Below, piece by piece: positions 20,038-31,859 of a stretch of 54,909 bases of DNA (position 1 is the first letter of the stretch; each line of letters starts with the position of its first letter). Below the pieces are notes generated by a model. It was not told where the DNA came from. It made no database searches and worked only from the letters and a program-made list of their open reading frames with translations. Location of the stretch: NCBI GenBank assembly GCA_023150295.1, contig JAKLLE010000018.1, positions 1 to 54,909 of the forward strand. The letters are read 5' to 3'. Origin of the DNA: Giesbergeria sp. GTDB lineage: Bacteria; Pseudomonadota; Gammaproteobacteria; Burkholderiales; Burkholderiaceae_C. The position numbers were made by a program, and so were the translations under genes.

Positions 20038-21001
20038 ACAGCCAGCCCGCCTTGCGGAAACGCCAGTACAGCAAGGCACCGGCGCTGACGATCGCGCCCA
20101 GCGCCATGGGGTAGCCAAAGGCCCACTTCAGTTCGGGCATGTGCTCAAAGTTCATGCCCCAGATGCCTGCCATGGCCGTGGACACCGCAAAAATCGCGGC
20201 CCAGGCCGCCAGGCGCTTGGTGGTTTCCGACTCCTCGATGGTCACCATTGACAGGTTCACCTGGATGGCCGTGCCGATGGTGTCGCGCATGGTGTCGATC
20301 GCGTTCTGGATGCGCGCCAGGTGGTCGTGCACATCGCGGAAATACTCCTGCGCGCCGGTGCACACCTCGGGCACGCGCCCGCCGTGCAGCTTGCCCGCCA
20401 CCTCCATCAGCGGCGCCACCGCATGGCGCAGCACCGTGGTGCGGCGCTTGAGCGCGTACAGCCGCTCGATCGAGCCGCGTGCCGTGCCGTGCTCGAAAAT
20501 GTCCTGCTCGATTTGCTCCAGCTCCGACTCGAAATCGTCGATCAGCGGGAAGTAGCGGTCCACCACCGCATCCATCAGTGCATAGAACACAAAGCCCGCG
20601 CCCAGGCGCAGCAACAGCGGCTCGCGCTCGCAACGGGCGCGCACGCCCAGAAAGTTCTGCTTGCTGCGGCTGCGCACCGACAACACAAAGTTGTGCCCCA
20701 CAAACACCGCCAGATCGCCCACGTTGAGCTCCCCGTCGTCCGGCTCCACCAGGCGCATCACCGCAAACAAGGTCTTGCCGTACTCCTCCAGCTTGGGGCG
20801 CTGCAGGCCCTTGAGCGCATCCTCCACCGCTAGGTCGTGCAGGTCGAACTCCTCCTGCATGGTGCGCAGCTCCTCGTGCGTGGGGTCACGCAGCGCCACC
20901 CACACAAAGGCATCGGGCCGCTGCAGCCAGTCGCTGATGGCTTCGACGTCAATATCGGCCAGCTTGCGGCCGTTTTCGTAGGCAACACAGTTGAGGATCA
21001 T
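20036..21001 (-). CDS. corA: CorA-family magnesium/cobalt transporter
   Basis: 321 residues. A long N-terminal cytoplasmic domain (FVWVALRDPTHEEL near residue 32) and helical stalk are followed by two C-terminal membrane helices. The signature GMNFEHMPELKW lies after the first helix; the Y/F-GMN filter is kept as WGMN. Forms pentameric Mg2+ uptake channels in the inner membrane. The gene is apparently single, downstream of and in the same direction as the ArsR gene. Its stop lies within the end of repeat copy 4. Confidence 0.93.
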   Translation of the reverse strand: MILNCVAYENGRKLADIDVEAISDWLQRPDAFVWVALRDPTHEELRTMQEEFDLHDLAVEDALKGLQRPKLEEYGKTLFAVMRLVEPDDGELNVGDLAVFVGHNFVLSVRSRSKQNFLGVRARCEREPLLLRLGAGFVFYALMDAVVDRYFPLIDDFESELEQIEQDIFEHGTARGSIERLYALKRRTTVLRHAVAPLMEVAGKLHGGRVPEVCTGAQEYFRDVHDHLARIQNAIDTMRDTIGTAIQVNLSMVTIEESETTKRLAAWAAIFAVSTAMAGIWGMNFEHMPELKWAFGYPMALGAIVSAGALLYWRFRKAGWL

Positions 21002-21067
21002 GGTGAGTGGGCGCGGCCAAGTGCGGGGCGCCTATCTTGGCACGGGAGTGAAAGCGCGTAGTGTGCG

Positions 21068-21427
21068 TCAGTTCGGGCCGAATACCCGCTGGCGCTGCGC
21101 CAGCCGCGCCAGGTGGCTGCACACGCCGTCGCACAGCGCACCGACCGAGGCATCGGCGCAGCGGTACCAGGCGCTGTGGCCGCGCTGTTCGCGCTGCACC
21201 AGGCCGTGGCGCATGAGCAGCGCCAGGTGGCGCGAGACATTGGCCGGGCTGCAGCCGCAGCGCCGGGCCAGGCCGCCCACCGTGTGCTCGCCCTCGGCCA
21301 GCCATTGCAGCAGGGCCAGGCGCGTGGGTTCGCCCAGGGCGTGGAAATGCGCTGCCACGGCTTCCAGCACGTCGTCCGGAATGGTGGGCCCGCCGGGAGG
21401 GCAGGGGGTGGCGGGAGGCGGTTGCAT
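21068..21427 (-). CDS. ArsR-family transcriptional repressor, cysteine-rich
   Basis: 119 residues with a winged-helix domain: HALGEPTRLALLQWLAEGEHTVGGLARRCGCSPANVSRHLALLMRHGLV. It lacks the classic ELCVCDL metal site. Cysteines are at 9, 57, 59, 90, 99 and 103; the pair C99/C103 in the last helix (LCDGVCSHL) recalls thiol/persulfide-sensing relatives such as BigR and SqrR, though ligand identity is inference. It diverges from the RND/SQR operon across a 118-base region holding two palindromes and overlapping promoters, so it most likely represses both directions. Weak ribosome site. Confidence 0.85.
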   Translation of the reverse strand: MQPPPATPCPPGGPTIPDDVLEAVAAHFHALGEPTRLALLQWLAEGEHTVGGLARRCGCSPANVSRHLALLMRHGLVQREQRGHSAWYRCADASVGALCDGVCSHLARLAQRQRVFGPN

Positions 21428-21438
21428 GGCGTTCTTTT

Positions 21439-21474
21439 CAACTAGTTGACTATTTAACTAGTTACGCAAATAAT
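21439..21474. promoter_or_regulatory. Tandem palindromic operator with overlapping promoter of the RND/SQR operon
   Basis: CAACTAGTTG (21439-21448) and TAACTAGTTA (21455-21464) are two palindromes sharing the core AACTAGTT, 16 bases centre to centre. On the plus strand TTGACT (21446-21451), 17 bases and AATAAT (21469-21474) form a good promoter, so a repressor bound at the palindromes would cover the -35 and spacer. On the minus strand TTAAAT/TAAATA in the same area is a possible -10 for the ArsR gene. Confidence 0.7.
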
Positions 21475-21545
21475 AGCGCAACACGCATCCCATGAACAGC
21501 CCTGTCCGCACGCCGGAGCAGGGCAGAACAGGCAGGAACCACCCC

Positions 21546-22580
21546 ATGTTCAAGAACCTTTCCTCACAGGCGGCCCTGGCGCTGGCACTGGCGACCGCCC
21601 CGGTTGCGGTACTGGCGGCACCGTGGGCCACCGAGCCCGCCCAGGCCGCCAGCCAGGCGGGCCGCAGCAGCTACGACGGCGTGGTCGAGGCGCTGCGCCA
21701 GACCGTGGTGGCCGCGCAGGTGCCCGGCGCCGTGGTGGAGCTGGCCGTCAAGGCGGGCGACACGGTGCAGGCGGGCCAGTTGCTGCTGCGCATCGATGCG
21801 CGCAGTGCAGACCAAAGCGCCGCTGCCGTCGATGCCCAGGTGCAGGCCGCACGTGCGCAGCTCGACGTGGCCACGCGCGAATACGAGCGGCAGAAGCAGC
21901 TCTTTGCCAAGAAGTACATCAGCCAGGCCGCGCTGGACCGTGCCGAGGCCGAGGTGCGTGCCGCCCGCGCCCAGGCCAGCGCGCAAACCGCCCAGGCGGG
22001 CGCCGCGCGCACGCAAACCGGCCTGCACGTGGTGCGGGCGCCCTATGCCGGCGTGGTGGCCGAGGTGCCTGTGGCCCTGGGCGACATGGCCATGCCCGGA
22101 CGCCCCTTGCTCACGCTCTACGACCCGGGGCAACTGCGGGTGACGGCCGCCGTGCCCCAGTCGGCCCTGCCCGCAGGCGTCAAGCCGGAGGACGTGCGTG
22201 TGGAGCTGGGGGGCCAGGGCACGCAGACCACGCCGCAGCGCGTTCAGGTGCTGCCCACCGTGGACCCCGCCACGCACACGGTGCAGGTGCGCGCCGACCT
22301 GCCCCCAGGCCTGGCCGGTGCCCGCCCAGGGCTGTTTGCACGCCTGTGGCTGCCCGGTGCGCCGGGCGCGGGTGAGGGTGCGCGCATCACCGTGCCGCAA
22401 AGCGCCGTGGTGCGCCGCGCCGAGCTCACCGGCCTGTACGTGCTGGGCGCGGGCGGCCAGCCCCAGCTGCGCCAGGTGCGCCTGGGCCGGGCCGAAGGCG
22501 GGCGGGTGGAAGTGCTCAGCGGCGTTGCCGCAGGCGAAGCCGTGCTGACCGAGCCGCAGACCGCGGCCCGCGCACGCTGA
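21546..22580 (+). CDS. RND efflux periplasmic adaptor (membrane fusion protein)
   Basis: 344 residues, HlyD/AcrA type. A signal peptide (to ...VAVLAA) precedes the lipoyl half (VVAAQVPGAVVELAVKAGDTVQAGQLLLRID), an alpha-hairpin (about 75-145) and the second lipoyl half (HVVRAPYAGVVAEVPVALGDMAMPG). A beta-barrel and membrane-proximal domain follow. Start ATG 21546 is chosen over 21492 because AGGA lies 8 bases upstream and the signal peptide begins there. First gene of the operon; 13 bases before the pump gene. Confidence 0.92.
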   Translation: MFKNLSSQAALALALATAPVAVLAAPWATEPAQAASQAGRSSYDGVVEALRQTVVAAQVPGAVVELAVKAGDTVQAGQLLLRIDARSADQSAAAVDAQVQAARAQLDVATREYERQKQLFAKKYISQAALDRAEAEVRAARAQASAQTAQAGAARTQTGLHVVRAPYAGVVAEVPVALGDMAMPGRPLLTLYDPGQLRVTAAVPQSALPAGVKPEDVRVELGGQGTQTTPQRVQVLPTVDPATHTVQVRADLPPGLAGARPGLFARLWLPGAPGAGEGARITVPQSAVVRRAELTGLYVLGAGGQPQLRQVRLGRAEGGRVEVLSGVAAGEAVLTEPQTAARAR

Positions 22581-22593
22581 AAGGATCGCCACC

Positions 22594-25500
22594 ATGACGC
22601 AGGAACACCAGACGCCCGCGCTGGGCATCTCGGGCCGCATCGCAAGCTTCTTCCAGTCTGCGCAGATCACGCCGCTGCTGGCGCTGGTGGCGCTGCTGCT
22701 GGGCATCTTTGCCGTGCTGGTCACGCCGCGCGAAGAGGAGCCGCAGATCAACGTCACCATGGCCAATGTGCTGATCCCGTTCCCCGGCGCCAGCGTGCGC
22801 GACGTGGAGCAGATGGTCGCCATCCCCGCCGAGCAGGTGCTGTCGCAGATCAGCGGTTCCGAGCATGTGATGTCGGTCTCGCAGCCCGGCATGGCGGTCA
22901 TCACCGTGCAGTTCAAGGTCGGCGTGCCGCGCACCGAGGCGCTGGTGCGCCTGTACGACACCGTGCACTCCAACGCCGACTGGCTGCCGCGCCACCTGGG
23001 CGTGATGGAGCCGCTCATCAAGCCCAAGGGCATTGACGACGTGCCCATCCTGAGCCTCACGCTGCACAGCACGCGCGCCGATGCCGGCCCGTTCGACCTG
23101 GAGCGCGTGGCGCACAGCCTGGAGGCCGACCTCAAGCGCGTGCCCGGCACGCGCGAGGTACGCACCCACGGCGGCCCCGGCCGCGCGGTGATGGTGGAGA
23201 TGGACCCCACGCGCATGGCGGGCATGGGCGTGACCGTGGCCGACCTGCGCCAGGCCCTGCAGTCGGCCAACCAGGGCCTGCCCGTGGGCGAGCTGCTGCG
23301 CGGCAACCAGGCGCTGGCGCTGGAGGCCGGGCCGTTCCTGCGCGACGCGCAAGAGGTGGGCGAGCTGGTGGTGGGCGTGCGCGAAGGCAAGCCCGTGTTC
23401 CTGCGCGAAGTGGCCCAGGTGCGCGACGGTGCGCCGCCCAGCACGCAGTACGTGTGGCACGGCACCGCAGGGCAGGACGCCGCCGAACATCCGGCCGTCA
23501 CCATCGCCGTGACCAAGAAGCCGGGCGAAAACGCCATCGACGTGGCCAATGCCGTGCAATCGCGCGTGGCGCAACTGCAGGGCACCGTGATCCCGGCCGA
23601 TGTGCAGGTGGTCACCACGCGCAACTACGGCGCAACAGCCGACGAGAAGGCGCGCCAGCTCATCAGCAAGCTGCTGTTCGCCACGGCGTCGGTGGTGGCG
23701 CTGGTGTTCATTGCGCTGGGGCGGCGCGAGGCGGCCATTGTGGGCACGGCCGTGGTGCTCACGCTCACGGCCACGCTGTTTGCGTCCTGGGTGTGGGGCT
23801 TCACGCTCAACCGGGTGTCGCTGTTTGCGCTGATCTTCTCCATCGGCATCCTGGTGGACGACGCCATCGTGGTGGTCGAGAACATCCACCGCCACCAGCA
23901 CCTGCACCCCGGCAAGCCGCTGTGGCAAATCATCCCCGGTGCCGTGGACGAAGTGGGCGGCCCCACCATCCTGGCCACGCTCACCGTCATTGCGGCGCTG
24001 CTGCCCATGGCCTTTGTGTCGGGCCTGATGGGGCCGTACATGAGCCCCATCCCCATCAACGCCAGCATGGGCATGCTGCTGTCGCTGGCCATTGCCTTTG
24101 CCGTCACCCCATGGCTCGCGCGCCTGTGGATGAAGGCCGTGCCCGCCGGCAGCGGCCACGGCAGCGCCGAGGGCGCCGCCCACGCTGCGCCGCAGGGCCT
24201 GGCCGGGCGCATTGCGCCGGTGTTCGAGCGCATCTTCCGCCCGCTGCTCGACGCCCAGGCTGGCGCGCGCAACCGCCGCCTGCTGGGGCTGGGCGTGGCG
24301 GCGCTGATCGCGCTGTCGGTGGCGCTGCCCGTCATCGGCTGGGTGCAGCTCAAGATGCTGCCGTTCGACAACAAGTCCGAATTCCAGGTGGTGGTGGACC
24401 TGCCCGCAGGCACCCCGCTGGAGCACACCGCCGCCACGCTGCACGCGCTGGGCGCGCACCTGGCCACGGTGCCCGAGGTCACGCACTACCAGGCCTATGC
24501 GGGCACGGCTGCGCCCATCAACTTCAACGGCCTGGTGCGCCAGTACTACCTGCGCAGCGGCGGCAATGTGGGCGACATCCAGGTCAACCTCGTGGCCAAG
24601 GGCGAGCGCAAGCAGCAAAGCCACGCCATCGCCATGCGCGAGCGCGCCACGCTGCAGGCCATTGGCCAGCGCTTTGGTGCCAACGTCAAGGTGGTGGAGG
24701 TGCCGCCCGGCCCGCCGGTGCTCGCCCCCATCGTGGCCGAAATCTACGGCCCCGACGCCCAAGGCCGCCGCCAGGTGGCCCAGGCCGTGCGCAAGGCGTT
24801 GGCCCAGACCGACGGGCTGGTGGACATTGACGACAGCAGCATTGCCGACGCTCCGCGCACCCTGCTGCTGGTGGACCGGCGCAAGGCCGCGCTGCTGGGC
24901 GTGCCGCAGCAGGCCATCGTGACCACGCTGCGCGCGGGCCTGGCCGGTGAGCAGGCGGCCTATCTGCACGACCAGAGCAAGTACCCCGCCGCCGCCACGC
25001 TGCAACTGCCGCCCACGCTGCACGGCGACCTGCAGGCGCTGTTGCAGCTCGGTGTGCGCAGCGCCACTGGTGCGCTGGTGCCGCTGCGCGAGCTGGTCAC
25101 CGTGAGCGACAGCCTGCGCGAGCAGCCCGTGTTCCACAAAGACCTGCTGCCCGTGAACTATGTCGTGGCCGACATGGCCGGCCGCGTGGACAGCCCGCTG
25201 TACGGCATGTTCCAGGCGCGCAGCGCCATTGCGCAGATCACCGCGCCCGACGGCGGCCAGGTCGAGGAGTTCTTCATCCGCCAGCCCAGCGACGCCTGGC
25301 GCGGCTACGCCCTCAAGTGGGACGGCGAATGGCAGATCACCTACGAGACCTTCCGCGACATGGGCGCCGCCTATGCCGTGGGCCTCATCCTGATTTACCT
25401 GTTGGTGGTGGCGCAGTTCGGCAGCTACCTCACGCCGCTCATCATCATGGCGCCCATCCCGCTGACCATCATCGGCGTGATGCCGGGCCACGCCCTGCTG

Positions 25501-25860
25501 GGTGCGCAGTACACGGCCACCAGCATGATCGGGATGATCGCGCTGGCGGGCATCATCGTGCGCAACTCCATCCTGCTGGTGGACTTCATCAACCTGCAGG
25601 TGCGGGGCGGCGTGCCGTTCGAGCGCGCCATCGTGCACTCGGCCATCACGCGCGCCCAGCCCATCGTGCTGACCGGTCTGGCCGCCATGGTGGGTGCGTT
25701 CTTCATCCTGGACGACCCCATCTTCAACGGCCTGGCGATCTCGCTGATCTTCGGCATCGCCGTGTCCACCGTGCTCACGCTGGTGGTCATCCCCACGCTG
25801 TACTACATGGCCTACCGCCACCGGCTGGATCGCCTGCGCCCGGCCAGCATCGCCCAATAG
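22594..25860 (+). CDS. RND efflux pump permease (HAE1-type)
   Basis: 1,088 residues with the standard 12-helix, two-porter-loop layout. TM1 is ALVALLLGIFAVLV, followed by PREEEPQINVTMANVLIPFPG, which is typical of RND pumps. The proton-relay aspartates are in TM4 (SIGILVDDAIVVVENI). TM10-12 include GMIALAGIIVRNSILLVDF. The C-terminus is short. AAGGA precedes the ATG. The association with an SQR and thiol-type proteins suggests an unusual substrate rather than generic drugs; this is inference. A repeat copy begins at the stop codon. Confidence 0.92.
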   Translation: MTQEHQTPALGISGRIASFFQSAQITPLLALVALLLGIFAVLVTPREEEPQINVTMANVLIPFPGASVRDVEQMVAIPAEQVLSQISGSEHVMSVSQPGMAVITVQFKVGVPRTEALVRLYDTVHSNADWLPRHLGVMEPLIKPKGIDDVPILSLTLHSTRADAGPFDLERVAHSLEADLKRVPGTREVRTHGGPGRAVMVEMDPTRMAGMGVTVADLRQALQSANQGLPVGELLRGNQALALEAGPFLRDAQEVGELVVGVREGKPVFLREVAQVRDGAPPSTQYVWHGTAGQDAAEHPAVTIAVTKKPGENAIDVANAVQSRVAQLQGTVIPADVQVVTTRNYGATADEKARQLISKLLFATASVVALVFIALGRREAAIVGTAVVLTLTATLFASWVWGFTLNRVSLFALIFSIGILVDDAIVVVENIHRHQHLHPGKPLWQIIPGAVDEVGGPTILATLTVIAALLPMAFVSGLMGPYMSPIPINASMGMLLSLAIAFAVTPWLARLWMKAVPAGSGHGSAEGAAHAAPQGLAGRIAPVFERIFRPLLDAQAGARNRRLLGLGVAALIALSVALPVIGWVQLKMLPFDNKSEFQVVVDLPAGTPLEHTAATLHALGAHLATVPEVTHYQAYAGTAAPINFNGLVRQYYLRSGGNVGDIQVNLVAKGERKQQSHAIAMRERATLQAIGQRFGANVKVVEVPPGPPVLAPIVAEIYGPDAQGRRQVAQAVRKALAQTDGLVDIDDSSIADAPRTLLLVDRRKAALLGVPQQAIVTTLRAGLAGEQAAYLHDQSKYPAAATLQLPPTLHGDLQALLQLGVRSATGALVPLRELVTVSDSLREQPVFHKDLLPVNYVVADMAGRVDSPLYGMFQARSAIAQITAPDGGQVEEFFIRQPSDAWRGYALKWDGEWQITYETFRDMGAAYAVGLILIYLLVVAQFGSYLTPLIIMAPIPLTIIGVMPGHALLGAQYTATSMIGMIALAGIIVRNSILLVDFINLQVRGGVPFERAIVHSAITRAQPIVLTGLAAMVGAFFILDDPIFNGLAISLIFGIAVSTVLTLVVIPTLYYMAYRHRLDRLRPASIAQ

Positions 25861-25915
25861 CTATCAAAACAATAGCTGTTTGCGCACTACCCATAAGCCT
25901 TAAAAGCCAAAAATA
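25860..25915 (+). repeat. Three-hairpin dispersed repeat, copy 5
   Basis: GCTATCAAAACAATAGC and TGTTTGCGC are kept; the third module is degenerate (AAAAGCCAAAAATA). It fills the whole gap between the RND pump and the AhpD-like gene, inside the operon. Confidence 0.85.
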
Positions 25916-25917
25916 CC

Positions 25918-26277
25918 ATGACCAGCTACCAGGACATCACCCGCACCACCTCGGCCCAGCTTGCCAGCCTGCGTGCCGACATCCCCGACACGATGCGCGG
26001 CTTCTCCGCCATGGCCCAGGCCGCCACCAAGGACGGCGCGCTCGACAAGACCACCAAGGAGCTGATTGCCATGGCGCTGTCCGTGGCCGCGCGCTGCGAC
26101 CCCTGCGTCGGCTACCACGCCAAGGCGCTGGTGGAACTGGGCGCCTCGCGCGCGCAGGTCGCCGAGGCGCTGGGCATGGCCGTGTACATGGGCGGTGGCC
26201 CCTCGCTCATGTACGCCGCCAAGGCCTCCGCCGCGTTCGACGAATTCAGCCAACTCAGCGCCCAGGCCACCGCCTGA
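25918..26277 (+). CDS. Carboxymuconolactone decarboxylase / AhpD-like family protein
   Basis: 119 residues, all-helical. The AhpD-type redox centre is present: Glu48 (TTKELIAMALS), Cys60 and Cys63 in CDPC, and His67 (VGYHAKAL). Members with this ExnCxxCxxxH arrangement act as disulfide reductases or peroxidases rather than decarboxylases. Lies between the pump and the TolC-type channel gene of the same operon, so it probably handles a thiol or persulfide linked to that system (inference). No strong ribosome site; the repeat lies directly upstream. Confidence 0.88.
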   Translation: MTSYQDITRTTSAQLASLRADIPDTMRGFSAMAQAATKDGALDKTTKELIAMALSVAARCDPCVGYHAKALVELGASRAQVAEALGMAVYMGGGPSLMYAAKASAAFDEFSQLSAQATA

Positions 26278-26308
26278 GCCCGTGGACAGAAAGACAGAAA
26301 GGCTCCCG

Positions 26309-27694
26309 ATGCAAGCCCTCTGGCGCACCTCCCTGCTGGCCCTGGCACTGGCCGCCCCCACGGCCCGGGCCACCGACCTGCTGCAGGCCTGGCAGGCCGC
26401 GCAGCAAAACGACCGTGAACTGGCCGTGGCCCGCGCGGCCCAGGCCACCGCGCAACCCCTGCGCGACCAGGCACGCTCCCTGTGGCGCCCCGGCGTGGCG
26501 CTCACCGCATCCGCAGGCGTGGCCACGGGCGAGAGCGACATGCGCGGCGCGCAGTTCTCGGCGCCCGGCATGGGCACGTCGAGCGGCGTGAACTTCAGCA
26601 CCTCGGTCACCGGCGGTACGGCCACGCGCTGGGCGTTGCAGGCGCGCCAGCCCCTGCTCAACGCCGAGCGCCGCGCCCAGCAGCAGCAACTGGGCCTGCA
26701 GGCCGACAGCACCGAGCTGCAATGGCAGGCCGCACAACAGGCGCTGATGCTGCGCACCGCGCAGCGCTACTTCGAGCTGGCCGTGGCGCAGGAGTCGCTC
26801 CAGGTGCTGCAGCGCCAATACGAGGCCGTGCAGCAGGCCGCCGCCGAAGCGCAGGACCGCTTCGCGCTGGGCGCCGCCCCCATCACCGCCACGCACGAGG
26901 CCCGCGCGCGCCAGGGCGCACTGCGCGCCCAGGTGCTCGCCGCCCAGGTGGCGCTGGACCTGCGCCGCCGCGAGCTGGCCGACAGCACCGGCCTGCCCAT
27001 GGACGGCTTGCAGGCGCACCTGCCCGCAGCGCTGGTGCCCGAGCCCGCGCGCACCCAGGCCGCGCTGGCGCACGGGCAGGCCCAGGCGCAGGACGGCAAC
27101 CCCCAGATCCGCCTGCAGCAACTGGCCGCCGACATCGCGCAGGCCGAGGCCGACAAGCACCGCCGCAGCGCCGCCCCCACGGTGGACCTCGTGGCGCAGG
27201 CGGGCGATGAGCGCCTGCGCGGCAGTGGCGACCACGGCAGTGCGCGCAACCGCAGCGTCAACGCCATGGTGGGCGTGCAGCTCACCGTGCCGCTGTACAC
27301 CGGCGGCTGGCGCGGCGCCAAGGAGACCGAAAGCCTGCGCCGCTGGGACCAGGCCCGTGCCCAGGTCGAGGCCACGCGCAGCCAGGTGGACCGCGATGTG
27401 CACGCCGCCTGGCTGGGCCTGCAGGTGGGCGCCGAGCGCGTGCAGGCGCTGGGCCAGGCATTGCAGGCCAGCGAGGCGCGCCTGGACGCCACCCGCACCG
27501 GCCTGGAGGTCGGTCACCGCACCGTGCTCGACCTGCTGAACGCCGAAAACGACACCGCCGCCACGCGCCTGTCGCTGGCCCAGGCGCGCGCCAGCCTGGT
27601 GCTGGAACAACTGCGCCTGGCCGCGCTGGCGGGCCAGCTCGACGAGGCCACGCTGCGCAGCGTGCAGCCGCCAACCCCAGGAGCGGCGCAATGA
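26309..27694 (+). CDS. TolC-family outer-membrane efflux channel
   Basis: 461 residues. A signal peptide (to ...APTARA) precedes two internal outer-membrane-efflux repeats rich in Gln/Ala coiled coil (EARARQGALRAQVLAAQVALDLRRRELA; TVLDLLNAENDTAATRLSLAQARASLVLEQLRLA). Trimeric channel partner of the adaptor and RND pump. ATG 26309 has AAAGG upstream. The gene starts 31 bases after the AhpD-like gene. Confidence 0.92.
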   Translation: MQALWRTSLLALALAAPTARATDLLQAWQAAQQNDRELAVARAAQATAQPLRDQARSLWRPGVALTASAGVATGESDMRGAQFSAPGMGTSSGVNFSTSVTGGTATRWALQARQPLLNAERRAQQQQLGLQADSTELQWQAAQQALMLRTAQRYFELAVAQESLQVLQRQYEAVQQAAAEAQDRFALGAAPITATHEARARQGALRAQVLAAQVALDLRRRELADSTGLPMDGLQAHLPAALVPEPARTQAALAHGQAQAQDGNPQIRLQQLAADIAQAEADKHRRSAAPTVDLVAQAGDERLRGSGDHGSARNRSVNAMVGVQLTVPLYTGGWRGAKETESLRRWDQARAQVEATRSQVDRDVHAAWLGLQVGAERVQALGQALQASEARLDATRTGLEVGHRTVLDLLNAENDTAATRLSLAQARASLVLEQLRLAALAGQLDEATLRSVQPPTPGAAQ

Positions 27695-27706
27695 AATTGC
27701 TATTAA

Positions 27707-27763
27707 AACAATAGCTACTTGCGCTTGATGTTATTGCCCTGCAGCCCAATTTGACCCCAAATT
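27707..27763 (+). repeat. Three-hairpin dispersed repeat, copy 6
   Basis: TTGCTATTAAAACAATAGC, TTGCGCTTGATG and GCAGCCCAATTTG. It sits inside the operon between the TolC-type gene and the DUF302 gene. Confidence 0.85.
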
Positions 27764-27785
27764 TCTTTGAGAGGAATCCCTTGCC

Positions 27786-28205
27786 ATGACCACCCCCGCC
27801 TACGCCTTCACCGCCGAGCTGGCCCAGCCGCTGCCCCAGGCCCTGGAAACCCTGCGCGCCGCCTTGGCCGCCGAGCAAATGGGCATCGTCAGCGAGGTGG
27901 ACATGCAGGCCACGCTCAAGGCCAAGCTCGGGCTGGACAGCCCGCCCCAGCGCCTGCTGGGCCTGTGCTCGCCGCGCATTGCCCATGCCCTGGTGAGCGC
28001 CGAGCCCGACATCGCCGCGCTGCTGCCCTGCGGCGGCAGCATTGCCGAGCCCACGCCGGGGCGCACGCGCATCGTGCTGCAGGACCCGCGCGTCATCCTG
28101 CAGGCCAGCGGCAGCACCCAGGCCGAAGTGCGCGATGCGCTGGAGCAGGCCCGCGCCGCCGTGCAGCGCGTGGCGCAGCGTCTGGGCGCAGGCCAGGAGG
28201 CCTGA
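27786..28205 (+). CDS. DUF302-domain protein
   Basis: 139 residues, cytoplasmic. The DUF302 core is visible: an N-terminal strand-helix unit ending VDMQATLKAKLGLDS, then RLLGLCSPRIAHALVSAEPDIAALLPC and TRIVLQDPRVIL. Function of the family is unknown; members often occur beside sulfur-oxidation or SQR genes. The conserved Cys in GLCSPRIAH may be functional. AGAGGA lies upstream of the ATG. The coding end supplies AGGAGG for the next gene. Confidence 0.88.
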   Translation: MTTPAYAFTAELAQPLPQALETLRAALAAEQMGIVSEVDMQATLKAKLGLDSPPQRLLGLCSPRIAHALVSAEPDIAALLPCGGSIAEPTPGRTRIVLQDPRVILQASGSTQAEVRDALEQARAAVQRVAQRLGAGQEA

Positions 28206-28206
28206 C

Positions 28207-29337
28207 GTGGCCGCGCGCATCACCATCCTGGGGGCGGGCTTTGGCGCGCTGTCTGCGGTGCGCGCGCTGCGCCACCGCGATCCGCGCGCCGAGATCACCC
28301 TGGTGTCCCCGCGTGCCGAGCTGCACTACCTGCCCGGCATCATCTGGATCCCCAGCGGCCTGCGCTCGCGCGAGCAGCTCATCGTGCCGCTGGGGCCATT
28401 CTTCCAGCGCATGCGCGTGCGCCATGTGGCGGCGGAAGTCACCGGCCTGCAGGACGGCGGGCGAACCGTGCTCACCACCGGCGGTGAAGTCACCAACGAC
28501 GCGCTCGTGATTGCCACGGGCGGGCGCTTCATCAAAAAGCTGCCCGGCATCGAGCACGCCATCACCCCCTGCGAGGGCATTGCCGCCGCAGAAGCCATCC
28601 GCGACCGCCTGCGTGCCTTGCAAGGCGGCACCATTGCCGTGGGCTTTGCCGCCAACCCGCAGGAGCCCCAGGCCGTGCGTGGCGGGCCGATGTTCGAATT
28701 TTTGTTCGGCATCGACACCCAGTTGCGCCGCGAAGGGCGGCGCAGCAGCTTTGAGCTGGTGTTCTTCAACCCCAGCCAGGAGCCCGGCAACCGCCTGGGC
28801 CCGGCCACCGTGCAGCACCTGCTGGCCGAGATGGCGCGCCGGGGCATCCGCACCCACCTGGGGCACAAGATGCAGCGTTTCGAGGCCGACAAGGTGGTCA
28901 CCGAGGGCGGGGAGTTTGCGGCCGACCTCATCCTCTTCATGCCCGGCATGACGGGTAGCGCCTGGTTCGACCAGACCGACCTGCCGCGTTCCCCTGGCGG
29001 CCTGCTGCAGGCCGACGCACACTGCCGCGTGCCCGGCACCGAGCACGTGTGGGTGGTGGGCGACTCGGGCAGCTTCCCCGGCCCCGACTGGATGCCCAAA
29101 CAAGCCCACATGGCCGACCTTCAGGCCCGGGCCGCAGCAGCCAACCTGCTGGCGGCCCTCGCCGGGCGCCCAGCCACGGCGCGTTTCAAGGTGGAGCTGG
29201 CCTGCATCATCGACAGCCTGGACCAGGGCACCCTGGTCTGGCGCACCCCCACGCGCCAGCGCCTGCTGCCGCCCCTGCGCGCCATGCACTGGGCCAAGCG
29301 CGCCTTTGAATGGAATTACCTGCGACCTTACCGCTAG
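28207..29337 (+). CDS. SQR-like FAD/NAD(P)-binding flavoprotein
   Basis: 376 residues, two-dinucleotide-binding-domain fold: ITILGAGFGALSAVRAL at the N-terminus, the second ATG motif ALVIATGGRF, and VWVVGDSGSFPGPDWMPKQA near the FAD ribityl site. Resembles sulfide:quinone reductases but lacks a signal peptide. Cysteines lie at 122 (ITPCEGI), 273 and 333 (ELACIID); the last two-thirds keep an SQR-like C-terminal cysteine, but the Cys around 160 of classical type I enzymes is not seen. Start is GTG 28207, one base after the DUF302 stop, chosen because AGGAGG lies 6 bases upstream. Confidence 0.82.
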   Translation: MAARITILGAGFGALSAVRALRHRDPRAEITLVSPRAELHYLPGIIWIPSGLRSREQLIVPLGPFFQRMRVRHVAAEVTGLQDGGRTVLTTGGEVTNDALVIATGGRFIKKLPGIEHAITPCEGIAAAEAIRDRLRALQGGTIAVGFAANPQEPQAVRGGPMFEFLFGIDTQLRREGRRSSFELVFFNPSQEPGNRLGPATVQHLLAEMARRGIRTHLGHKMQRFEADKVVTEGGEFAADLILFMPGMTGSAWFDQTDLPRSPGGLLQADAHCRVPGTEHVWVVGDSGSFPGPDWMPKQAHMADLQARAAAANLLAALAGRPATARFKVELACIIDSLDQGTLVWRTPTRQRLLPPLRAMHWAKRAFEWNYLRPYR

Positions 29338-29427
29338 CCCCGCCACCCTGCGGTGCGCCCCAGGCCCGCGCACCGCAGTCATTCCCCCGGCCCAGCCCAT
29401 GCCACACATCAACGACAGGAGACAAGC

Positions 29428-30777
29428 ATGAAGCGAGACAAAACCACCACCCACCGCGCACCCCAAGGGGCGCCCACACGCCGTGCCTGGCTGGCCGGCG
29501 CAGCCAGCGCCAGCGCCGCTGCGGGCCTGGGCCTGCAGCCCACCGCAGCGCAGGCGACACGCCAGGCCACGCAGGCCCACATCGTCATTGCGGGCAGCGG
29601 CCTGGCAGGCATTGCCGTAGCGCACCGGCTGCAGGGCCTGCTCGACGGCGCCAAGATCACGATCATCGACGCCAAGGAAGTGCACAACTACCAGCCCGGC
29701 TACACCCTGGTGGCCAGCGGCGTGTGGCCGGTGGACAAGGTGATCGACAGCAACGCCAGCCTGCAACCAGCAGGCGTGCAGTGGGTGCGCGAGATGGTGG
29801 CCGAGTTCGACCCCGCCGCCAACACCGTGGTCACCGCAGGCGGCCAGCGCATCCGCTACGACTACCTGGTGGTGGCCGTGGGCACGCACCAGGACTGGGC
29901 GCAGATCGAAGGCATGGACACCAAGGCCATTGGCCGGGACGGCCTGGCCAGCGTGTACCCCAGCTCCGACGCCGCCGTGGCCACCTGGGCCGCCATGGAC
30001 CGTTTCCGCCAAAAGGGAGGCCAGGCCGTGATGAAGCTGCCCTCCACGCCGCTCAAGTGCGCGGGCGCGCCGCTCAAGATGACCTTCATGGTGCGCGACC
30101 GCCTGGCCCAGGCGGGCACGCTGGGCAAGTCGCAGGTCACGTTCTACTCGGCATTGCCCAATGTGTTCAGCGTCAAGACCGTGAACGACAACGTGCTGGA
30201 GCGCTGGAAGGCCCTGGGCGTGCAGGTGCAGTTCACGCAAAAGCTCAAGGCCATCGACATCGGCGCGCGCCGCGCTACCTTTGTGAACCCCGAAGGCGCA
30301 GCCACCGAGGTGCCCTATGACTTCATCCACGTGGTGCCGCCCATGCGCGCGCCCGACGCGGTGAAGAACTCCGACCTCGCCTGGAAGGAAGGCCCCATGG
30401 CCGCAGGCGGCTGGCTGGAGGTGGACAAGGACACGCTGCAGCACCGCCGCTACAAAAACGTGTTCGGCCTGGGCGACATCAACGGCACGCCGCGCGGCAA
30501 GACGGCGGCCACGGTCAAGAAAAGCGCCCCCATCGTCGCGCAGCACCTGGCCGATGTGATCGCCGGGCGCGCGCCGGGCGAAAAGTTCGACGGCTACACC
30601 TCCTGCCCGCTCATCGTGCGCGAAGGCTCGGCCATGCTGATCGAGTTTGACTACGAAGGCCGACTCACCCCCTCGCTGCCCATGATCGAGCCGCTGCAGG
30701 AAAGCTACTTCGCCTGGCTCATGAAGGTGCGCATGCTCAAGCCCGCCTACATGGCGGTGCTCAAGGGCAGGGTTTGA
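29428..30777 (+). CDS. sqr: Type II sulfide:quinone oxidoreductase, Tat-exported
   Basis: 449 residues. A Tat signal (TRRAWLAG, residues 17-24, then an Ala-rich core) directs it to the periplasm. The FAD fold follows: HIVIAGSGLAGIAVAHRL, YDYLVVAVGTH and NVFGLGDINGTPRGKTAATV. It matches the mitochondrial SQOR type, with catalytic Cys211 in LKCAGAPLK and Cys393 in DGYTSCPL. The HVVPPMRAPD and DTLQHRRYKNVFG segments are also shared. Oxidises sulfide to sulfane sulfur with quinone as acceptor. Has AGGAG before the ATG. A periplasmic site is notable, as bacterial type II enzymes are often cytoplasmic-face proteins. Confidence 0.88.
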   Translation: MKRDKTTTHRAPQGAPTRRAWLAGAASASAAAGLGLQPTAAQATRQATQAHIVIAGSGLAGIAVAHRLQGLLDGAKITIIDAKEVHNYQPGYTLVASGVWPVDKVIDSNASLQPAGVQWVREMVAEFDPAANTVVTAGGQRIRYDYLVVAVGTHQDWAQIEGMDTKAIGRDGLASVYPSSDAAVATWAAMDRFRQKGGQAVMKLPSTPLKCAGAPLKMTFMVRDRLAQAGTLGKSQVTFYSALPNVFSVKTVNDNVLERWKALGVQVQFTQKLKAIDIGARRATFVNPEGAATEVPYDFIHVVPPMRAPDAVKNSDLAWKEGPMAAGGWLEVDKDTLQHRRYKNVFGLGDINGTPRGKTAATVKKSAPIVAQHLADVIAGRAPGEKFDGYTSCPLIVREGSAMLIEFDYEGRLTPSLPMIEPLQESYFAWLMKVRMLKPAYMAVLKGRV

Positions 30778-30804
30778 CCACCACGCAAGCAAAGGAGACA
30801 CACC

Positions 30805-31134
30805 ATGTACGAAATCTGGCTGGTAATGAACATCGTCTATGAAATCGCCTTAGGGGTCTGGCCCCTGCTGGCGCTGCTGCTCGCCGTGTGGCTGGGTCTG
30901 CTGGTGGCCGCGCGTGGCCGCCTGGGGGCGCGCCAGGTGCGCCAGGCGGCGCTGCTGGGCGCGCTGGTGGCTGTGGCGCTGTTCTTCAGCGTGCCCACGC
31001 TCACCCAGTCGTCCCTGGCCAACATGGGCTACTGGGTGGACTGGGCCAACCTGCTGGCCGTGGCGTTGGGGTTGGGCGCGCTGGCGGCGGTGTTCAGCCT
31101 GCCGCTGCTGGGGCTGGCAGGCGGGCGCAGATAG
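30805..31134 (+). CDS. Small inner-membrane protein, unknown function
   Basis: 109 residues with three predicted membrane helices (VYEIALGVWPLLALLLAVWLG; AALLGALVAVALFFSVPTL; WANLLAVALGLGALAAVFSL). AAGGAG precedes the ATG. It starts 27 bases after the SQR stop and ends the RND/SQR operon. I recognise no family. It might anchor or pass electrons for the periplasmic SQR, but that is only a guess from position. Confidence 0.75.
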   Translation: MYEIWLVMNIVYEIALGVWPLLALLLAVWLGLLVAARGRLGARQVRQAALLGALVAVALFFSVPTLTQSSLANMGYWVDWANLLAVALGLGALAAVFSLPLLGLAGGRR

Positions 31135-31289
31135 GCAAGCGAAAACCGCAGGCCCCCGTGCACCCCGTCACGCCGGCGCCAGGTGCCTGCGCCGGGCGGG
31201 CCTTGCCGAGCCGGGCCTGTCGTGCGATGCTGCGCGCCTGTCGCCGCGCTGCAGTGTGCGGCCCCTTCCCCACGAAAGGACAACCACCC

Positions 31290-31859
31290 ATGCGCATCGC
31301 ACCCTGGATCCTGGCCCTGGCGGCCGCAAGCGTTTTTGCCACCGCAGCCACCGCACAAACCACCAAGCTGCGCCCCGGCCTATGGGAGCACAGCGGCACC
31401 ATGAAGAGCCAGAGCGGCCAGATGGAAGCCGCCATGGCCGAAATGCAGAAATCCCTGGCCAGCATGCCGCCCGAGCAGCGCAAGCAGATGGAGCAGATGA
31501 TGGCCCAGCAGGGCGTGGGCATGACGCCCGGCGGTGGGCATGTGGTGCGCATCTGCATGACGCAGCAGGACGTGGACATGGACCAACTCCCCGCCCAGGA
31601 AGGATGCACGCAAAAGGTGGATCGCGTGGGCGCCAACACTGTCAAGGTGGCGTTCCAGTGCAAGGGCGGCAAGGGCCAGCCGCCGTCCTCGGGCGAGGGC
31701 ACGGTCACCATCGAAAGCCCCACGGCCTACAGCGGCAAGCACCGCTTCAAGACCACGCAGGAAAACGGTCGCCCCGAGCAGATCGACATGGTGCAGAAGG
31801 GCCGCTGGCTGGGGGCAGACTGCGGGCAGGTCAAGCCCTTCAATCAGCCCCGGCGCTGA
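31290..31859 (+). CDS. DUF3617-family periplasmic protein
   Basis: 189 residues. A signal peptide (to ...ATAATA) precedes the family opening KLRPGLWEHSGTMKS, and later VRICMTQQDVDM and GCTQKVDRVG. The middle is Met/Gln-rich (PPEQRKQMEQMMAQQG). Function unknown. AAGGA precedes the ATG. A 155-base gap separates it from the SQR operon, so it may be transcribed separately. Confidence 0.85.
   Translation: MRIAPWILALAAASVFATAATAQTTKLRPGLWEHSGTMKSQSGQMEAAMAEMQKSLASMPPEQRKQMEQMMAQQGVGMTPGGGHVVRICMTQQDVDMDQLPAQEGCTQKVDRVGANTVKVAFQCKGGKGQPPSSGEGTVTIESPTAYSGKHRFKTTQENGRPEQIDMVQKGRWLGADCGQVKPFNQPRR

What the first reader, a model, noticed from the sequence alone, without database searches (positions are those of the whole stretch)
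21068..31134. ArsR-controlled RND pump operon fused to sulfide-oxidising flavoproteins: a candidate sulfane-sulfur response and export system
Seen: a cysteine-rich ArsR repressor diverges, across a tandem palindromic operator, from eight same-direction genes: RND adaptor, RND pump, AhpD-like CxxC protein, TolC-type channel, DUF302, an SQR-like flavoprotein, a Tat-exported type II SQR (Cys211 and Cys393 kept) and a 3-helix membrane protein. Known: type II SQR makes sulfane sulfur; AhpD-like CxxC proteins handle disulfides; BigR/SqrR-type ArsR proteins sense persulfide. Inference: the operon detects sulfide or polysulfide, oxidises it in the periplasm and cytoplasm, and expels a reactive sulfur species or sulfur-bearing compound through a dedicated tripartite pump. 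I know of no described system with this full set, though my recall is not exhaustive.
Basis: partly seen in the sequence, partly recalled or inferred. Interest (0 to 1): 0.8.

Follow-up and report, generated by a model that had tools for sequence, protein, structure and literature searches.

The report
Sulfide-linked RND efflux pump operon
A bacterial operon couples an unusual cysteine-free export pump to sulfide-oxidising enzymes; related operons are common in Beta- and Gammaproteobacteria, which suggests a dedicated way of expelling reactive sulfur, though what the pump carries is unproven.

Summary
The nine genes are present as described, behind one promoter at 21446-21474. The sulfur link is not a quirk of one strain: the pump belongs to a distinct RND clade. 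Of 97 clade loci (57 genera), 30 have a sulfide:quinone oxidoreductase (SQR) within 6 kb and 90 a small YgaP-like membrane protein, against 0 and 0 of 40 control RND loci. The clade's pumps are nearly all cysteine-free (153 of 169; controls 8 of 45) and have none of nine aromatic residues that I recall as lining AcrB's drug pockets. SQRb is a Tat-motif type II SQR by sequence. Two parts of the first interpretation fail: the ArsR lacks the BigR/SqrR cysteine pair and carries a conserved CxxxC instead, and SQRa lacks a cysteine expected of an SQR. The kind is partly described: an SQR-RND operon of matching gene order in Azospira suillum was H2S-induced and flagged by Bar-seq, yet its deletion left the H2S oxidation rate unchanged (PMC5358917); RND pumps near sulfane-sulfur-type ArsR regulators were noted in 2025 (PMC12423496). 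Best reading: a sulfide/sulfane-sulfur defence operon whose pump removes a reactive sulfur product from the periplasm. Substrate and signal are unproven.

The parts
21068..21427 (-). ArsR-type repressor with CxxxC (C99, C103); not BigR/SqrR type
21440..21474 (+). promoter TTGACT-17-AATAAT (21446-21474) with overlapping near-palindromic putative ArsR operator
   Evidence: binding not tested
21546..22580 (+). RND periplasmic adaptor (MFP), no cysteine; start could also be 21492
22594..25860 (+). RND pump, cysteine-free, own clade; proton-relay D422, D423, R990, R1020, T1027
25918..26277 (+). AhpD/CMD-domain protein with C60xxC63; stands where most relatives have a YgaP-like TM protein
26309..27694 (+). 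TolC-type outer-membrane channel, no cysteine
27786..28205 (+). DUF302 protein, two cysteines (C61, C82)
28207..29337 (+). SQRa: SQR-like flavoprotein, no signal seen, lacks the GASCFGP cysteine; three other cysteines kept in 14 of 14 homologues aligned
29428..30777 (+). SQRb: type II SQR with RR (Tat-like) motif, C211 and C393
30805..31134 (+). TM3: small membrane protein, next to SQRb in 8 of 12 other SQRb loci

Best explanation
A sulfide / sulfane-sulfur stress operon. Proposed working: the ArsR protein sits on a near-palindrome inside the spacer of the promoter and lets go when thiols such as C99/C103 are modified, or when a sulfur-related signal appears (inferred). SQRb, sent to the periplasm by the Tat route (motif shown, export inferred) and probably held at the membrane by TM3 (inferred from pairing), oxidises sulfide to persulfide or polysulfide on the periplasmic side (activity inferred from kept residues). 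AhpD-like, DUF302 and SQRa deal with thiol or persulfide chemistry in the cytoplasm (inferred; weakest part). Adaptor, RND pump and TolC channel take a reactive sulfur product from the periplasm and drive it out of the cell by proton flow (relay residues shown; substrate inferred). The pump's lack of cysteine and of aromatic pocket residues fits a thiol-reactive, polar cargo.
For: Gene neighbourhood: any SQR in 30 of 97 clade loci (21 genera), YgaP-like TM in 90, thioredoxin in 30, ArsR in 58; in 40 control RND loci 0, 0, 3 and 0. Type I SQR in 71 of 103 genomes with the clade pump and 27 of 197 without (p 6e-22, kinship not corrected). 58 of 84 YgaV-like ArsR matches near clade pumps have both YgaV cysteines. 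The pump clade is Cys-free in 153 of 169 against 8 of 45 controls; changes to or from Cys 1 over tree length 11.23 against 61 over 31.57. Aromatic pocket positions 0 of 9 in all 170 clade rows. SQRb keeps both redox Cys (12 of 12 other homologues) and RR (11 of 11 with an N-terminus). Conserved operator. A second CxxxC ArsR in the own genome faces YgaP-TM, rhodanese and OsmC genes behind a similar element. In PMC5358917 (passages) an operon of order MFP-SQR-RND-unknown was H2S-induced and was the single operon pointed to by Bar-seq; 14 of the 97 clade loci have the order MFP-SQR-RND-YgaP-TM.
Against: 67 of 97 clade loci have no SQR within 6 kb. Deleting the Azospira operon or its SQR did not change the H2S oxidation rate, and other RND systems rose too; that its pump is in this clade is inferred from gene order only. 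SQRb shows no genome-level association with the pump (6 of 103 and 7 of 197, p 0.38). The window ArsR lacks the known sulfane-sulfur cysteine pair. SQRa lacks an expected SQR cysteine. 8 of 45 control pumps are Cys-free too, and 3 of 45 also have no aromatic at the nine positions. No transport, binding or expression data for the window.
Confidence: 0.5

Rival explanations
1. The pump exports metal-thiolate or metal-sulfide species (or metals freed during sulfide stress); the SQRs merely lower free sulfide.
For: Azospira authors suggest export of metal sulfides (PMC5358917, passages). The ArsR is nearest in PDB to metal sensors SmtB and CzrA, and CxxxC could bind a metal.
Against: The pump has DD (D422/D423, 169 of 169 clade rows) and is apart from CusA in the tree. 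It has no Cys at all. YgaP-TM, thioredoxin and SQR neighbours point to sulfur chemistry.
Confidence: 0.2
2. The pump exports organic polysulfanes, thiosulfinates or mixed disulfides (plant or microbial organosulfur toxins), and the flavoproteins and AhpD-like protein repair thiol damage.
For: AhpD-like and, in relatives, thioredoxin neighbours; OsmC in the second ArsR operon. Allicin-tolerance clusters with similar small genes are recalled, not tested. SQRb-like genes occur on onion-associated Pantoea plasmids at about 40% identity.
Against: Type I SQR, which acts on sulfide, is the commonest SQR partner (28 of 97); AhpD-like within 6 kb in only 1 of 97, though seen in four named loci (L039, L048, L066, L070).
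Confidence: 0.15
3. An ordinary multidrug or stress RND pump that happens to share a promoter with sulfur genes.
For: RND pumps are many (9 in this genome), and several RND systems rose with H2S in Azospira.
Against: 0 SQR and 0 YgaP-like genes beside 40 control pumps against 30 and 90 of 97; separate clade with 141 positions conserved at 97% or more and at most 10% in 48 controls, three of which were wrong frames.
Confidence: 0.1

Closest known systems
Azospira suillum PS operon Dsui_3440-3443 (PMC5358917; outline, passages and one methods section seen)
   Same: Unknown protein, RND pump, SQR and MFP in one operon; highly expressed with H2S; singled out by Bar-seq. Same order as 14 clade loci.
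   Different: Window has type II SQR, SQRa, DUF302, AhpD-like, TolC and TM3, and lacks YgaP-TM. Homology of Dsui_3441 with the window pump could not be tested here.
Sulfane-sulfur-responsive ArsR regulons with RND pumps (noted in PMC12423496 section 2.1)
   Same: ArsR repressor gene beside RND pump and sulfur genes.
   Different: Those regulators were picked for two conserved cysteines; the window ArsR lacks them.
Human SQOR / type II SQR
   Same: SQRb aligns over residues 51-441 with both redox cysteines, E about 1e-68.
   Different: Tat-like motif in SQRb and in 11 of 11 homologues with an N-terminus; TM3 partner.
E. coli ygaV-ygaP
   Same: YgaV-like regulators (58 of 84 with both Cys) and YgaP-like TM proteins (90 of 97) near the clade pumps.
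   Different: No RND pump in the E. coli stretch viewed; the window has neither YgaP-TM nor a YgaV-type regulator at this operon.
AcrB-type HAE1 multidrug pumps
   Same: Fold family (ACR_tran), tripartite gene set, proton-relay residues with K940 replaced by R.
   Different: Separate clade, Cys-free, none of the nine aromatic pocket positions.

Membership tests
BigR/SqrR/YgaV sulfane-sulfur ArsR repressors | ArsR winged helix fold | tested here: met
   HTH_5 and HTH_metalloreg over cut-off
BigR/SqrR/YgaV sulfane-sulfur ArsR repressors | Two diagnostic cysteines (YgaV columns) | tested here: not met
   Q41 and A107 in the window ArsR; BigR model 34.3 against 155
BigR/SqrR/YgaV sulfane-sulfur ArsR repressors | Response to persulfide | not testable with these tools
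   needs protein
Type II SQR (SQRb) | Closest solved relative is a type II SQR | tested here: met
   human SQOR, 236 bits; next best 3hyv 74 bits
Type II SQR (SQRb) | Both redox cysteines | tested here: met
   C211, C393; 12 of 12 other homologues
Type II SQR (SQRb) | Sulfide oxidation and quinone reduction | not testable with these tools
   needs enzyme assay
SQR (SQRa) | Cysteine of the GASCFGP motif | tested here: not met
   R in its place in the alignment
SQR (SQRa) | Pyr_redox_2 flavoprotein fold | tested here: met
   66.9 bits, cut-off 26.1
HAE1-type RND pump | ACR_tran and proton-relay residues | tested here: met
   480.1 bits; D422, D423, R990 (for K), R1020, T1027
HAE1-type RND pump | NCBIfam multidrug RND subfamily cut-offs | tested here: not met
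   RND_permease_2 443 against 1250; 2A0602 260 against 940
HAE1-type RND pump | Aromatic drug pocket of AcrB | tested here: not met
   0 of 9 aromatic positions; distant alignment, pocket list recalled
SQR-RND-YgaP-TM sulfide operon (clade defined here) | Pump within the clade | tested here: met
   SH-aLRT 100 in two quick trees
SQR-RND-YgaP-TM sulfide operon (clade defined here) | SQR gene in the operon | tested here: met
   SQRb, type II in place of type I
SQR-RND-YgaP-TM sulfide operon (clade defined here) | YgaP-TM gene near the pump | tested here: not met
   no match in the window at E 1 or better; two on contig C94 of the genome
SQR-RND-YgaP-TM sulfide operon (clade defined here) | Induction by H2S | not testable with these tools
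   needs RNA or reporter assay

The most novel reading that the evidence does not exclude
A family of RND tripartite pumps has specialised in exporting sulfane sulfur (polysulfide or low-molecular-weight persulfide) made by SQR on the periplasmic side. It has shed its cysteines and the aromatic drug pocket, and different lineages control it by two different kinds of ArsR repressor (BigR-type cysteine pair, or CxxxC).
Probability: 0.4. Interest if true: 0.82.

Novelty: new variant of a known kind. Interest (0 to 1): 0.6.

Why it matters
How sulfide-oxidising cells get rid of reactive sulfane sulfur without harming their own thiols is, to my knowledge, poorly understood. A widespread pump family tied to SQR, free of cysteine and with an altered pocket, is a concrete candidate exporter with simple genetic tests. 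It would also show RND pumps serving sulfur metabolism, and not only drugs and metals.

Tried and rejected
Rejected: BigR/SqrR membership of the window ArsR; strain-specific accident; membership in the sampled multidrug clades; plasmid-borne pump (no plasmid record matched the pump at E 1e-150; SQRb matches 147 plasmid records, all under 60% identity).

Paper searches (10 of 10 used): SQR + DUF302 + RND, 0 papers; RND efflux + sulfide quinone + ArsR + carboxymuconolactone decarboxylase, 0; 6 papers; 3; 1; 4; 46 holding two of three terms, 15 listed; 6; 4; 4. led to PMC5358917 and PMC12423496.

Weak points. In the first pump tree three 'controls' (L262, L263, L278) were wrong reading frames and two own-genome pumps were in the pool twice; re-derived the controls (45 of 46 recovered). 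One search used the older 48 controls; searches used these less the three wrong ones (45, the two duplicates still in). One search warns that a long-branch control (L008) joins near the clade, and only quick trees were built. The 40 control loci come from 23 genomes and were picked by hand at steps down a list that was capped and favours high scores. The neighbourhood queries for adaptor, TolC and ArsR come from this clade, so their low control counts overstate the contrast. A script failed and was rerun; one paper search had an invalid term. Of the window outside the operon only eight further genes were put to Pfam. No structure was predicted.
Full report
OBSERVATION. The nine genes stand at the stated places and fall in the stated families. 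SQRb is a type II SQR by sequence: human SQOR is the best PDB match (E about 1e-68) and both redox cysteines align. The promoter TTGACT-17-AATAAT (21446-21474) is the only promoter-like site in 21000-31400 and lies in the ArsR-adaptor gap.

CONSERVATION. The pump matched 127 of 300 evenly drawn genomes of the order (own genome included) at E 1e-200: 103 with a match at 59% identity or more, 24 only at about 39-45% (counted). I fetched the surroundings of all 97 full-length loci at 59% or more outside the own genome, and 3 of the distant group; six genomes with fragments only were left out. Within 6 kb of the pump, of 97: adaptor 95, YgaP-like TM 90, ArsR 58, thioredoxin 30, type I SQR 28, SQRb 2, any SQR 30, TolC-like 18, DUF302 4, TM3 2, AhpD-like 1, SQRa 0. 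The flavoprotein of related loci is a type I SQR (At. ferrooxidans structure, E about 1e-191; the type name is recalled). The 69-aa protein is PF11127 YgaP-like_TM. Named relatives of the pump include Giesbergeria, Polaromonas, Undibacterium, Thiobacillus, Gallionella, Sulfurimicrobium, Thiohalophilus and Neptunomonas (the best 80 of at least 591).

GENOME LEVEL. Type I SQR is in 71 of 103 genomes with the clade pump and 27 of 197 without (Fisher p 6e-22, kinship not corrected); SQRb 6 of 103 and 7 of 197 (p 0.38); SQRa 13 of 103 and 5 of 197 (p 0.001).

WINDOW VARIANT. The window lacks a YgaP-like gene and has the AhpD-like gene right after the pump, as has its nearest relative L039, Giesbergeria. 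Closest in content are L152 and L154 (one genus): ArsR, adaptor, pump, YgaP-TM, thioredoxin, (TolC in L152), SQRb, TM3, DUF302. SQRb and TM3 pair: TM3 adjoins in 8 of 12 other SQRb loci. The RR motif is in 11 of 11 homologues with an N-terminus and both Cys in 12 of 12.

REGULATOR. Of 46 related ArsRs, 42 have Cys at the C99 column and 42 at the C103 column; four others (L080, L087, L163, L164) have the YgaV cysteines. One of the 46 (L044) is a mis-read frame. A search with YgaV found an ArsR near 84 clade pumps: 59 have the first YgaV Cys, one of them (L170) not the second; 25 lack the first, one of them (L045) a cut fragment. Some of these lie several kb from the pump, and some organisms may be in both locus sets. 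Operator: 30 of 47 gaps, the window included, score 15 or more of 20; shuffles 1 of 94; spacing 9 in 22 of the 30. The motif was read off this same set. In the own genome the pattern with up to 3 mismatches occurs once, here. A looser site (16 of 20, same spacing) lies upstream of YgaP-TM, rhodanese and OsmC genes that face a second CxxxC ArsR.

PUMP. One clade in two quick trees. No Cys in 153 of 169 clade pumps, nor in the window's, against 8 of 45 controls. Parsimony changes to or from Cys: 1 over tree length 11.23 (41 clade rows), 61 over 31.57 (49 control and E. coli rows). At the control rate about 22 would be expected, though a Cys-free clade can show gains only. Adaptor and TolC of the window are Cys-free too, which is common for periplasmic proteins (recalled). 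Proton-relay residues are kept, with R for K940. None of nine AcrB aromatic pocket positions is aromatic in 170 clade rows; the 45 controls range from 0 (3 of them) to 9. The clade has, for example, R343 (169 of 169), Q598 (166), Q633 (148) and Q663 (166) at such places. The pocket list is recalled and the alignment is distant.

LITERATURE. PMC5358917 (outline, passages, one methods section): Dsui_3440-3443 was the single operon from Bar-seq with H2S and was highly expressed; deleting SQR or the operon left the H2S oxidation rate unchanged; a DUF2892 (YgaP-like) gene elsewhere rose about 10-fold. The fitness sign is in a supplement that I could not read. PMC12423496 (section 2.1 and passages): two-cysteine ArsR regulators lie near RND pumps among other sulfur genes. 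Passages only: PMC11267869, PMC6504805, PMC10128140, PMC5037610, PMC7315123. PMC5037610 reports DUF302 genes in sox clusters, function unknown.

VERDICT. The sulfur link is well supported by comparison of genomes. The exported substance, the signal sensed and the work of SQRa are not. The core kind is partly described; the window is a new variant. That the pump clade is Cys-free with an altered pocket I did not find in print, within the searches, none of which asked for cysteine or pocket directly.

Noticed in passing
L291, L292 (own genome, contig C94, near 1-3 kb): A second ArsR of the same CxxxC kind faces an operon of YgaP-like TM, rhodanese and OsmC genes, with a similar promoter/operator element between them: a possible second member of the regulon.
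   Followed up: partly
L245, L246: More distant RND pumps (42-43% identity) also have type I SQR and YgaP-TM genes close by; 21 of the 24 genomes with only such distant pumps have a type I SQR.
   Followed up: partly
L120-L133: SQRa homologues (18 of 300 genomes, own included) lie away from the pump; three have DUF302 close by (L130-L132) and one a type I SQR (L127), so SQRa may belong to a separate sulfur module.
   Followed up: partly
plasmid hits H25-H29: SQRb-like genes at about 40% identity on onion-associated Pantoea agglomerans plasmids.
   Followed up: no
31290-31859: DUF3617 protein gene follows the operon on the same strand; whether it is part of it is unclear.
   Followed up: no
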